Positions 61,064 to 64,000 of a stretch of 64,000 bases of DNA are shown in pieces (the first letter of the stretch is position 1; each line of letters starts with the position of its first letter). Source of the stretch: Salinicola acroporae (GTDB taxonomy: Bacteria; Pseudomonadota; Gammaproteobacteria; Pseudomonadales; Halomonadaceae); contig NZ_PZJW01000003.1 of assembly GCF_003206615.1 (NCBI RefSeq), positions 62,001 through 126,000 of the forward strand, in the 5' to 3' direction. Under the pieces are notes generated by a model, which worked only from the letters and a program-made list of their open reading frames with translations, did no database searches and was not told the origin of the DNA. The position numbers and the translations under genes were made by a program.

Positions 61064-62500
61064 TCAGGCCAGACGCCTGGGCCGGCACCCCTCGCTCGCC
61101 TGCTGGCCCACCATCTCACCTACCCGCGCGACCGCCCGGGCGGTCGCGGTATCGAACACGGCGTGGTTGAGGCGCAGGCAGTGGCGATACTTGCCGGTGG
61201 CGGAGAACATCACGCCGGGGGCGATACGAATGTCCTCCGCCATCAGCCGCTCGTTGAGCGCGACGGTGTCGATACCTCCCTCGCACTGCAGCCATAGCAT
61301 GAAGCCTCCGGCCGGATAGCTGACCCGGGTCGAGGCCGGAAAGGCGTCGGCGATCAGGTCCAGCATCAGATTGCGATTGCGCTGATACTGGGCCCGCATC
61401 CGGCGCAGGTGGGGATCGTGGTGCCCCTCGCGGATGAACTCGGCCACCGCCATCTGCCCGTGGGTGGCGGTGGCGCCGGTACCGACGTACTTCATGTGCA
61501 GCGCCCGCTCGTGATAGCGGCCCGGCACGATCCAGCCGAGGCGCAGCCCCGGGGCCAGGGTCTTGGAGAACGAACTGCACAACAGCACCCGCCCATCCTC
61601 GTCGAAGGACTTGATCGTCGCCGGGCGTGGAAAGGCGTAGCTGAGGTCGCCATAGACATCGTCTTCGATGATCGCCACGTCGAAGCGCTGCGCCAGGGCG
61701 TAGAGCGCCCGCTTGCGCTCGAGCGACAGCGTATAACCGAGCGGGTTGTTGCAGGTCGGCGTCACCTGGATGGCACGAATCGGCCACTGCTCCAGGGCCA
61801 GCTCCAGCGCTTCGAGGCTGATCCCGGTTTCGGGGTCGGTGGGGATCTCCATCGCCTTCATGCCGTAGGCGCGAATCGACTGCAGGGCGCCATAGAAGCT
61901 CGGCGAATCCACCGCGATGATACCGCCGGGTTCGCACACCGCGCGCATGGCGATCGAGATCGCCTCGTGGCAGCCGGTGGTGACCACGATGTCGTCCGGG
62001 TGCAGCCGGCAGCCGTGACCGACCGCGAGGCGCGCGATCTGCTCGCGCAATTCGGGGCGCCCGTGCAGGGTATCGTAGTTGAGCCCGATCAGGTCCTGAC
62101 GCCGAATGACACGGGACAGCGCCCGGAGCAGCGGCTTGAGCGTCGGCGCATCGATGTCCGGCATCCCTCGGCCCAGGTTGTCCATGCTGGCGTCCGGCAG
62201 TACGCAGGTGCCCTCGCGCACCTGTTCCCACTGCGAGACTTCCACTGGCCGCTGCGCCGTTCGTCCAGCCGGTGGCGGCAGCGGCCGCTCCCGCTGAGGC
62301 GAGACGAAATAACCTGACTTGGGCCGCGCCTCGATCAGTTGTGCATCTTCCAGTTGATGGTAGGCGTGCTGCACGGTGGAGAGGCTGACCCCATGTGCCT
62401 GTGCCAGGGCGCGCACCGAGGGCAACCGGTCGGCGGGCCGGTAATAGCCCTTCTGGATGCGCTCGCGCAGATGATCGGCCAGTCGTTCGTAGCGGTGCAT
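61064..62500 (-). CDS. MocR-type GntR/aminotransferase transcriptional regulator
   Basis: 478 residues from ATG at 62500 (MHRYERLADHLRERIQKGYY). GntR winged helix in the first 70 residues (RLPSVRALAQAHGVSLSTVQ), linker, then aminotransferase-like domain with VVTTGCHEAISIAMRAVCEP and PLP lysine in LCSSFSKTLAPGLRLGWI near 307. It is divergent from the DUF1127-PhzF genes and probably regulates them in response to an amine; repeated ATACAGAT elements lie between. Convergent with mnmE (59-base gap). Confidence 0.92.
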   Translation of the reverse strand: MHRYERLADHLRERIQKGYYRPADRLPSVRALAQAHGVSLSTVQHAYHQLEDAQLIEARPKSGYFVSPQRERPLPPPAGRTAQRPVEVSQWEQVREGTCVLPDASMDNLGRGMPDIDAPTLKPLLRALSRVIRRQDLIGLNYDTLHGRPELREQIARLAVGHGCRLHPDDIVVTTGCHEAISIAMRAVCEPGGIIAVDSPSFYGALQSIRAYGMKAMEIPTDPETGISLEALELALEQWPIRAIQVTPTCNNPLGYTLSLERKRALYALAQRFDVAIIEDDVYGDLSYAFPRPATIKSFDEDGRVLLCSSFSKTLAPGLRLGWIVPGRYHERALHMKYVGTGATATHGQMAVAEFIREGHHDPHLRRMRAQYQRNRNLMLDLIADAFPASTRVSYPAGGFMLWLQCEGGIDTVALNERLMAEDIRIAPGVMFSATGKYRHCLRLNHAVFDTATARAVARVGEMVGQQASEGCRPRRLA

Positions 62501-62554
62501 GGGACCTCCGGAGACTATGGCCTCATTGTGTATGCTCGCTGCCGTCACTTCACG

Positions 62555-62637
62555 ATACAGATGCTGTCGAAGTCGGGCATACAGATGGCCTCATCGGGTT
62601 TCTGTATCCTCGATATAGCATTTTTCTGGATCTGTAT
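62555..62637. promoter_or_regulatory. Candidate MocR operator: four ATACAGA-type half-sites
   Basis: ATACAGATG occurs at 62555-62563 and 62579-62587 (24 bases apart). The inverse occurs as TCTGTAT at 62601-62607 and ATCTGTAT at 62630-62637. All lie in the gap between the regulator and the DUF1127 gene, giving two direct pairs in opposite orientation. Confidence 0.55.
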
Positions 62638-62693
62638 GGAGCCATCTTCTCGCCGTAGTCTGGATCCATCGTTCAGATACCGGGAGTCGTCCC

Positions 62694-62927
62694 ATGCGCC
62701 TTGCCCTGTTTTCTCCTCTGTTTCCGGCTTTTTCCCGCTGGAGAGCCGCGTCGAGCACAACTCAGAAGTCCGGCATCCAGGACACCCGACGCATCTACCG
62801 GCCCGGGCCCTGGGTGCGCTGGCGTACCCGCCAGCAGTTGGCACAATTGGATGCGCGACAGCTAGCGGATATCGGGCTCACGCCGGCCCAGGCACGACAC
62901 GAGATCCATCAGCCGTTCTGGCGCTAG
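62694..62927 (+). CDS. DUF1127 small protein
   Basis: 77 residues, highly basic. The second half, VRWRTRQQLAQLDARQLADI then GLTPAQARHEIHQPFW, is the DUF1127 domain with its RxxLxxLdxrqLxDiGL pattern. Some members bind RNA or act in phosphate and virulence regulation elsewhere. It starts the unit divergent from the MocR regulator, 43 bases before the PhzF-family gene. Confidence 0.88.
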   Translation: MRLALFSPLFPAFSRWRAASSTTQKSGIQDTRRIYRPGPWVRWRTRQQLAQLDARQLADIGLTPAQARHEIHQPFWR

Positions 62928-62970: not shown

Positions 62971-63870
62971 ATGACCCAAACGTTACAAACTCAGATACCG
63001 GTCGGGAAACGCGAGCCCTATCGCTACATTCTGCTGGATGTCTTCACCGATACCCCTTTCGCGGGCAACCCGCTGGCGGTATTCCCCGATGCAGCCGACC
63101 TGGATGGCGATGCCATGAAGCGCATCGCCAAGGAGCTTAATCTTTCGGAAACCGTGTTCATTACCGATCGCCGGCAGATCGATAACGTCAGCATTCGGAT
63201 ATTCACGCCCGTGGGAGAAATTCCTTTTGCAGGGCACCCCACCGTGGGTACCGCTTGCTTGCTGAAAGCGCTGGGTTGGCACGATGGTGAACGTCCCCTG
63301 CTGTTGAGGGAAGGCGTTGGTGATGTGCCGATCCGCTTCATGGGCAAACGTGCGCGCCTGACCACGGCGATGCCGCTCGAGATCAGCCCGTGTCCTCTCA
63401 CGATCGAGATGGCAGCAGAATCACTTGGTCTGCCGACGATTGCCATTGCCTCACCACCCGTGGCCGCGTCCTGCGGTATACGCTTCAATCTGATCGAGAT
63501 AACCGACCTCGACAGTCTCCGACAGGCCCAGGTCAATGTTGCCAGGCTTCAAAGCGTGTTCCCGAATCCCGCTGATCGCGACCTCTATCTTTATGTTCGC
63601 CAATCGGCGCAGCAGTTGCGCACACGCATGTTCGCACCTGCGATGGGGATTCCCGAAGATCCCGCAACGGGTAGCGCAGCGGCGCCTTTGATCGGTTATC
63701 TCTCCCGCCAAGCGTCCTTCGATCGAACGCTGGATTGGCATCTGATACAGGGCGTCGAGATGGAGCGCCCCAGCCATATCTACGGCCAGGTCGAGCATGG
63801 GACCCACGGAGATCTCATTCATATCGAAGGCGAAGCCGTCATCGTCGGCGAGGGAACTCTCTATCTCTGA
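62971..63870 (+). CDS. PhzF-family isomerase/epimerase-like protein
   Basis: 299 residues. YILLDVFTDTPFAGNPLAVF at the start, LNLSETVFIT with the catalytic Glu, RIFTPVGEIPFAGHPTVGTA, and the C-terminal EDPATGSAAAPLIGYL are the PhzF family marks in two pseudo-symmetric halves. PhzF itself isomerises a phenazine precursor; relatives act on unknown small molecules, and no phenazine genes are near. AAGGAGAAGGC precedes ATG 62971. Confidence 0.92.
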   Translation: MTQTLQTQIPVGKREPYRYILLDVFTDTPFAGNPLAVFPDAADLDGDAMKRIAKELNLSETVFITDRRQIDNVSIRIFTPVGEIPFAGHPTVGTACLLKALGWHDGERPLLLREGVGDVPIRFMGKRARLTTAMPLEISPCPLTIEMAAESLGLPTIAIASPPVAASCGIRFNLIEITDLDSLRQAQVNVARLQSVFPNPADRDLYLYVRQSAQQLRTRMFAPAMGIPEDPATGSAAAPLIGYLSRQASFDRTLDWHLIQGVEMERPSHIYGQVEHGTHGDLIHIEGEAVIVGEGTLYL

Positions 63871-63938: not shown

Positions 63939-64000
63939 ATGTCGGAAGCGGTCAACGGTGACGCAGGGGTTTACCACGGCGAATACAAGGTACCAGGCGG
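63939..64000 (+). CDS. Start of a lipoate/biotin ligase-like protein, cut by window edge
   Basis: ATG at 63939 after GGGCGAGG opens a frame to the window end, reading MSEAVNGDAG then VYHGEYKVPGG. The HGEYKVPGG motif is typical of a lipoate-protein-ligase-associated domain (continuing KL in relatives). Only 20 residues are visible, so the call is tentative. Confidence 0.5.
   Translation, partial: MSEAVNGDAGVYHGEYKVPG

What the first reader, a model, noticed from the sequence alone, without database searches (positions are those of the whole stretch)
62549..62693. Four ATACAGA-type half-sites between a MocR regulator and DUF1127-PhzF genes
ATACAGATG at 62555 and 62579 and its inverse TCTGTAT at 62601 and 62631 are unlikely to cluster by chance in 83 bases of GC-rich DNA. 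They form a probable regulator-binding array controlling the divergent genes. The pairing of MocR, DUF1127 and PhzF suggests a small uncharacterised amine-responsive unit.
Basis: partly seen in the sequence, partly recalled or inferred. Interest (0 to 1): 0.5.

Follow-up and report, generated by a model that had tools for sequence, protein, structure and literature searches.

The report
Conserved four-box switch for YjiR-type regulator
Four short repeated DNA words between two back-to-back genes are most likely a widely conserved docking site for a vitamin-B6-type regulator that sits beside a tiny DUF1127 protein gene in many Gammaproteobacteria, E. coli included; it is a good example of a known kind of switch, not a new kind.

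Summary
In detail: four half-sites (62555, 62579, 62601, 62631; spacing 24/21/30) lie between a MocR gene and DUF1127-PhzF in a Salinicola-like genome. They look like the operator of a YjiR-type MocR. E. coli K-12 yjiR (52% identical) is divergent from yjiS (DUF1127) and its intergenic region has four boxes with the same 24/21/30 spacing. Of 153 loci, nine of them duplicate genomes, 147 carry the array; 0 of 3060 shuffles do. Among 151 family genomes, 69 of 72 with this MocR have the site, 3 of 79 without. A DUF1127-type motif follows in 146 of 147. PhzF is optional: 41 of 68 family loci, 0 of 71 others. A hexamer [TC]ANNNT lies exactly 18 nt after box 4 in 125 of 138 arrays, which suggests an activated promoter; this is inference, and E. 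coli is an exception. Amine-responsiveness is untested. Four-box MocR operators were described in 2016 (PMC5320631), so this is a new member of a known kind. The useful point is a predicted YjiR-yjiS link, testable in E. coli K-12.

The parts
61064..62500 (-). MocR-subfamily (YjiR-type) regulator gene, 478 aa
   Evidence: GntR HTH plus aminotransferase I/II domains; 52% identical to E. coli YjiR over 465 aa; 98% to Salinicola lusitanus
62555..62562 (+). Box 1, ATACAGAT
   Evidence: conserved
62579..62586 (+). Box 2, ATACAGAT, 24 nt after box 1
   Evidence: conserved
62600..62607 (-). Box 3, TTCTGTAT on the plus strand (inverse box), 21 nt after box 2
   Evidence: conserved
62630..62637 (-). 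Box 4, ATCTGTAT on the plus strand (inverse box), 30 nt after box 3; covers the -35 position of the presumed DUF1127 promoter
   Evidence: conserved
62656..62661 (+). Presumed -10 hexamer TAGTCT of the DUF1127-PhzF promoter, 18 nt after box 4
   Evidence: position read; [TC]ANNNT at this exact gap in 125 of 138 distinct arrays; that it is a promoter element is inferred
62694..62927 (+). DUF1127 small protein gene, 77 aa (YjiS-type partner)
   Evidence: Pfam PF06568 E 1.6e-12
62971..63870 (+). PhzF-family isomerase gene, 299 aa, 43 nt after DUF1127; optional part of the presumed operon
   Evidence: Pfam PF02567 E 4.4e-59; TIGR00654 above cut-off

Best explanation
The four half-sites are the conserved operator of the adjacent MocR regulator, the Salinicola member of the E. 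coli YjiR group. Shown by sequence: four boxes with fixed order, orientation and (mostly) spacing 24/21/30, conserved with this regulator from the Salinicola family to Pseudomonas and Enterobacterales; absent in 76 of 79 family genomes without the regulator; one strong site found per genome scanned; a [TC]ANNNT hexamer phased exactly 18 nt from box 4. Inferred: PLP-loaded regulator dimers bind boxes 1-2 and 3-4. Binding at box 4, which stands where a -35 would be, recruits RNA polymerase to transcribe DUF1127 and, in this genome, PhzF. Occupancy of the array shuts off the regulator's own promoter, as in the GabR and PdxR divergons. DUF1127 is the constant target and PhzF a lineage-specific addition. 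The small-molecule signal is unknown; PLP itself, or an amino compound that reacts with PLP, is most likely from the fold.
For: 147 of 153 loci have it, 0 of 3060 shuffles; spacing 24/21/30 in 105 of the 147. E. coli K-12 yjiR-yjiS has GTACAGAT, ATGCAGAT, GTCTGTAT, ATCTGTAT at L074 7115, 7139, 7160, 7190. Sequence-only model R1 finds a site in 12 of 12 genomes with the MocR (six of them supplied training sequences) and in 0 of 6 without; any other match has E of 0.0136 or worse, apart from opposite-strand matches at the same place. Over 151 family genomes, 69 of 72 with the MocR have a site versus 3 of 79 without; leaving out the 13 training genomes, 56 of 59 versus 3 of 79. DUF1127-type motif within 800 nt downstream in 146 of 147 array loci, 0 of 153 on the opposite strand. 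[TC]ANNNT at gap 18 in 125 of 138 arrays; the mean over 45 gaps, that one included, is 4.6. It is also at gap 18 in 19 of 28 distant loci. PLP lysine K313, N252, D281 and R443 are invariant in 152 of 152 close and 28 of 28 distant aligned proteins. Divergent MocR regulators often activate the neighbour and repress themselves (PMC5320631, introduction passage).
Against: No binding or expression data. The hexamer is a strict TANNNT mainly in the Salinicola family (60 of 66 arrays); in the Pseudomonas/Enterobacterales set it is CANNNT (64 of 72 fit [TC]ANNNT but only 1 is TANNNT), a poor -10. I chose the pattern after seeing the column profile. E. coli K-12 has GGATGA at that gap. The consensus promoter scan found none in the window region, but shuffles give only 0.2, so that is uninformative. 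An E. coli study lists constitutive sigma-70 promoters for both yjiR and yjiS (PMC3946193, passage), and an SsrB site was proposed for Salmonella yjiS (PMC11707872, passage). Many sequences are close relatives; nine loci are duplicate genomes. The R1 searches scored a capped set of first-look candidates per genome (up to 150, 29), so further weak sites may have been missed. Three MocR genomes lack the site (G028, G044, G105), and three without the MocR have a match (G001, G056, G078).
Confidence: 0.72

Rival explanations
1. Same operator and same regulator, but pure repression: the MocR covers both promoters, and a ligand or loss of PLP releases it.
For: Box 4 overlaps the -35 position, where a repressor would also block polymerase; EnuR, another MocR member, is described as a repressor (PMC8739950, start of abstract in the listing); E. 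coli yjiS is listed with a constitutive promoter (PMC3946193, passage).
Against: A repressed promoter needs a workable -35 of its own; in the window the hexamers at spacers 16-18 from TAGTCT match TTGACA at 2 of 6 or fewer (read). Rigid phasing of the hexamer to box 4 is easier to explain by contact with polymerase.
Confidence: 0.27
2. The boxes are bound by a different regulator and lie beside the MocR only by position.
For: No binding data exist; 6 of 153 loci lack a good array.
Against: Presence of the site follows presence of this MocR (69 of 72 versus 3 of 79 family genomes).
Confidence: 0.05
3. Chance clustering of a common word.
For: The 7-mer is mildly over-represented in the window (7 versus 1.9).
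Against: Expected about 1e-7 times per window; conserved at 147 of 153 loci.
Confidence: 0.005

Closest known systems
E. coli yjiR-yjiS divergent pair
   Same: MocR 52% identical; DUF1127 partner; four boxes with identical 24/21/30 spacing
   Different: No PhzF in the stretch viewed; an extra half-site ATACAGAG at L074 7097-7104; no [TC]ANNNT at gap 18
MocR operators with four boxes (Suvorova and Rodionov 2016, PMC5320631, Table 2)
   Same: Four boxes in two inverted pairs, divergon, conserved TGT group; '<- <- -> ->' is listed for 8 regulogs and 39 regulons. If ATCTGTAT is taken as the forward box (my reading), the window array has this layout
PdxQ MocR regulons with a COG384/PhzF target (PMC5320631)
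   Same: MocR regulator with a PhzF-family target
   Different: PdxQ regulons also hold pdxO/pdxH and transporters; only DUF1127 and PhzF follow the window site
GabR of Bacillus subtilis and PdxR divergons
   Same: MocR fold; self-repression with activation of the divergent gene (PMC5320631 introduction passage)
   Different: Different targets (GABA use, PLP synthesis); GabR is a modest sequence match (PDB 4n0b, E 1e-19)
MpaR of Pseudomonas aeruginosa
   Same: MocR regulator that drives a neighbouring gene through a short upstream word (PMC10790758, passages)
   Different: One 7-base word, ATCTGAT, 61-62 bp upstream of the start, not a four-box array; cyanide-linked

Membership tests
MocR/GabR subfamily of GntR regulators | N-terminal GntR winged HTH plus C-terminal aminotransferase class I/II domain | tested here: met
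   PF00392 residues 4-66 E 2.3e-17; PF00155 residues 134-458 E 5.3e-37
MocR/GabR subfamily of GntR regulators | PLP Schiff-base lysine and carboxylate-type arginine | tested here: met
   K313 and R443 invariant in 152 of 152 and 28 of 28 aligned proteins; one of 182 was dropped for length. K313 aligns with the FSK lysine of solved aminotransferases; the roles of these residues are recalled
MocR/GabR subfamily of GntR regulators | Binds PLP and its operator | not testable with these tools
   needs purified protein
YjiR orthologous group | Close homology to E. coli YjiR and divergent DUF1127 neighbour | tested here: met
   52% over 465 aa; yjiS DUF1127 in the same arrangement
YjiR orthologous group | Same operator spacing as E. 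coli | tested here: met
   24/21/30 in both
YjiR orthologous group | Monophyly in a tree of all MocR paralogues | not tested
   no tree was built
PdxR equivalog (NCBIfam NF052282) | Score above curated cut-off of 320 bits | tested here: not met
   288.2 bits
PdxQ regulon type | Controls pdxO/pdxH and a transporter | tested here: inconclusive
   Only one strong operator found in the own genome, next to DUF1127 and PhzF; weaker sites elsewhere cannot be excluded
PhzF isomerase family | PhzF family model above cut-off and PhzF catalytic motifs | tested here: met
   TIGR00654 181.7 bits, cut-off 76.2; NLSE, FAGHP and ED.ATGSA motifs shared with PDB 1u1v. That these hold the catalytic residues is recalled

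The most novel reading that the evidence does not exclude
YjiR-type MocR regulators are PLP-based activators dedicated to DUF1127 small proteins, with box 4 of the array standing in for the promoter's -35. Because E. coli YjiS is reported to bind the sensor kinase PhoR, and a yjiS mutant to raise pstS expression (PMC12501420, passages), this would be a conserved route by which vitamin B6 or amino-compound status tunes two-component signalling, with PhzF as a lineage add-on that makes or removes the signal.
Probability: 0.2. Interest if true: 0.62.

Novelty: new member of a known kind. Interest (0 to 1): 0.38.

Why it matters
It gives a specific, cheap prediction in a model organism. YjiR is listed among E. 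coli transcription factors of unknown function (PMC9308461, passages), and YjiS is a small protein with phenotypes whose transcriptional control is unsettled (PMC11707872, PMC12501420, passages). The conserved four-box operator with a phased hexamer says YjiR controls yjiS, and shows where to mutate.

Tried and rejected
Chance: rejected. PhzF as core partner: rejected. Of 68 loci from the family search that I counted, PhzF lies within 2 kb in 41, is absent in 26, and one (L042) was too short. One of the 41, L017, is a 28-residue match only. L016 (9 mismatches) was kept; L025, L071, L072 and L073 were dropped for poor arrays, though L025 and L071 do have PhzF. Of 71 named loci L083-L154 (L142 left out), mostly Pseudomonas and Enterobacterales, 0 have it within the 4 kb held. 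In a set of ten genomes, four without the MocR have a PhzF match and two of the four with it have none. PdxR identity: rejected by cut-off. A genome-wide regulon: no second strong site in 12 genomes, within the capped candidates scored; the E. coli record behind L074 was not held, so E. coli was not scanned.

Method slips and limits: my first DUF1127 pattern had a wrong spacing and found nothing, even at known sites; it was corrected and widened. In one search the spacing grid was narrow; a wider grid gave shuffle totals of 8 in 5 and 9 in 4 of 2900 (letters shuffled singly), so distant loci with totals of 8-9 are not significant one by one; 10 of the 28 distant loci had 7 or fewer, 0 of 2900 shuffles did. 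Of 37 distant matches, only the 28 that came with loci were examined. I looked for matched changes of HTH residues and box letters: residues 28 and 44 differ between groups, the box letters do not split cleanly, so I draw nothing from it. L075-L082 and L142 are the same contigs, by length, as family loci, so 153 loci are 144 genomes; without the nine, 139 of 144 have the array. The promoter count (138) removes identical stretches only. R1 was trained on 26 of these operators. On checking I lowered the best explanation from 0.78 to 0.72 and raised the repressor rival from 0.25 to 0.27, because the Pseudomonas hexamers are CANNNT and the promoter scan is uninformative.

Papers: PMC5320631 outline, sections 7 (part 1) and 11, and passages; PMC11707872, PMC12501420, PMC6550539, PMC9308461, PMC3946193 and PMC10790758 passages only; PMC8739950 listing only. 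Supplementary tables and RegPrecise could not be read. Print status: no paper in the held library has DUF1127 together with MocR. The listings for yjiR/yjiS, DUF1127 with GntR and PhzF with MocR (10 of 13 listed) showed no title or abstract start on this operator; most of those papers I did not open.

Full report
What is there. The window lies in G000, a 4.37-Mb genome; its MocR protein is 98% identical to that of Salinicola lusitanus. That the family is Halomonadaceae is recalled from the named members. On the minus strand a MocR-type gene runs from the ATG at 62500 to 61064; on the plus strand follow a 77-aa DUF1127 gene (62694-62927) and a PhzF-family gene (62971-63870). Between them are four 8-base boxes: ATACAGAT at 62555, ATACAGAT at 62579, TTCTGTAT at 62600 and ATCTGTAT at 62630. 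Starts are 24, 21 and 30 bases apart.

Chance. The word ATACAGA is seen 7 times in the window against 1.9 expected, and four of the seven are in this 83-base stretch; a Poisson estimate puts that near 1e-7 per window.

Conservation. A search of 151 family genomes found the MocR at E 1e-100 or better in 72; these loci, E. coli K-12 and 80 named loci from genome contigs make 153. The array was found with 8 or fewer mismatches of 32 in 147, and in 0 of 3060 dinucleotide shuffles, the best of which reached 9. The six others had 9 (four), 13 and 15 mismatches. The spacing 24/21/30 is the commonest, 105 of 147. Over 97 distinct arrays of that spacing the CAG/CTG cores are almost invariant in all four boxes, and A-rich tracts lie between boxes 1 and 2 and between boxes 3 and 4.

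E. coli. In K-12, yjiR (MocR) and yjiS (DUF1127) are divergent. YjiR is 52% identical to the window protein over 465 residues. The intergenic DNA carries GTACAGAT, ATGCAGAT, GTCTGTAT and ATCTGTAT with starts 24, 21 and 30 apart, the same as in Salinicola. Of 5426 E. coli genomes, 3675 hold at least 80% of a 201-base stretch with this intergenic region.

The site follows the regulator. A sequence-only model of the operator (R1, 26 sequences) found a site in 12 of 12 genomes with the MocR, six of which had given training sequences, and in 0 of 6 without it; any other match had E 0.0136 or worse, apart from opposite-strand matches at the same place. Over the 151 family genomes, 72 have a site at E 0.01 or better: 69 of the 72 with the MocR and 3 of the 79 without. 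Leaving out the 13 training genomes this is 56 of 59 against 3 of 79. Of the three, G001 (E 2.3e-4) was not examined; the other two are weak, E 0.004. Only capped first-look candidates were scored (up to 150 per genome, 29). This argues that the MocR itself reads the boxes and that the site is local.

Core and cargo. A DUF1127-type motif follows within 800 nt in 146 of 147 array loci, with 0 of 153 on the opposite strand. By Pfam model, 69 of 72 family genomes with the MocR have a DUF1127 protein somewhere, against 12 of 79 without. PhzF lies within 2 kb in 41 of 68 family loci (one of them only a 28-residue match), is absent in 26, and one was too short; it is found at 0 of 71 named loci, mostly Pseudomonas and Enterobacterales. 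In two Salinicola relatives without PhzF (L075, L076) the gene that follows PhzF in the window comes directly after DUF1127. In a set of ten genomes PhzF matches do not follow the MocR, while DUF1127 does, 4 of 4 against 0 of 6. So PhzF is an optional part of the operon. Among 28 more distant MocR loci (41-49% identity), 6 have a PhzF match downstream on the divergent side and 4 a DUF1127 motif.

Promoter logic. A [TC]ANNNT hexamer lies exactly 18 nt after box 4 in 125 of 138 distinct arrays; the mean over the 45 gaps tested, that one included, is 4.6. In the distant group it is at gap 18 in 19 of 28. In the window this is TAGTCT at 62656-62661. I chose the pattern after seeing the column profile. 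In the family set it is a strict TANNNT in 60 of 66; in the Pseudomonas/Enterobacterales set 64 of 72 fit but only 1 is TANNNT, so there it is a poor -10. Box 4 occupies the place of a -35, and in the window no hexamer at spacers 16-18 matches TTGACA at more than 2 of 6 (read). The consensus scan found no promoter, but would find only 0.2 by chance, so that says little. This is the picture of a promoter that needs an activator touching polymerase, but it is inference. E. coli K-12 is an exception: its hexamer at that gap is GGATGA, and an E. coli study lists constitutive promoters for both genes (PMC3946193, passage). In the Pseudomonas/Enterobacterales set a reverse-strand TANNNT lies between boxes 1 and 2 in 53 of 72 distinct arrays, a candidate -10 of the regulator's own promoter; it sits in the conserved A-rich tract, so it is only suggestive of self-repression.

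Sensor. K313 (PLP lysine), N252, D281 and R443 are invariant in 152 of 152 close and 28 of 28 distant aligned proteins (one protein was dropped for length). This fits a PLP-based sensor of an amino compound or of PLP, but the ligand is unknown. The 'amine-responsive' label is plausible, not shown.

What is known. Suvorova and Rodionov (PMC5320631, sections and passages) describe MocR operators of two to four boxes, including '<- <- -> ->' in 39 regulons, divergons with self-repression, and PhzF (COG384) among targets. YjiS in Salmonella (PMC11707872) and DUF1127 proteins binding PhoR (PMC12501420) have been studied; word searches found no MocR in either text and no yjiR in the first. YjiR has been called a MocR-family regulator in print, and its deletion in an EHEC strain had no effect on mouse gut colonisation (PMC6550539, passages). 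The finding is therefore a well-conserved new member of a known kind, with a testable link between YjiR and yjiS.

Noticed in passing
G000:C31:138218-138322 (L226): A second DUF1127 match elsewhere in the same genome, in a longer frame, with no R1 match at E 1 or better; family genomes with a DUF1127 match carry one to four of them.
   Followed up: partly
L074 7097-7104: E. coli K-12 has a fifth half-site ATACAGAG between yjiR and box 1 of its array.
   Followed up: no
L184-L211: More distant MocR regulators of the same class have related four-box arrays, mostly spaced about 25/21/31, with words such as GTACAGTT and AACTGTAC, some next to DUF1127 or PhzF; perhaps a wider operator family.
   Followed up: partly
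window 63939-64000: Gene start after PhzF (MSEAVNGDAGVYHGEYKVPG...), which in two Salinicola relatives without PhzF follows DUF1127 directly; lipoate-ligase-like from memory, not tested.
   Followed up: partly
L017 and L018, upstream positions 56 and 86: Halotalea-type loci carry an extra inverse box TTCTGTAT 30 nt before box 1.
   Followed up: no
G001:C34:6519-6599: An operator-like site (E 2.3e-4) in a family genome without a MocR match at the cut-off used; could be a diverged or decayed locus.
   Followed up: no
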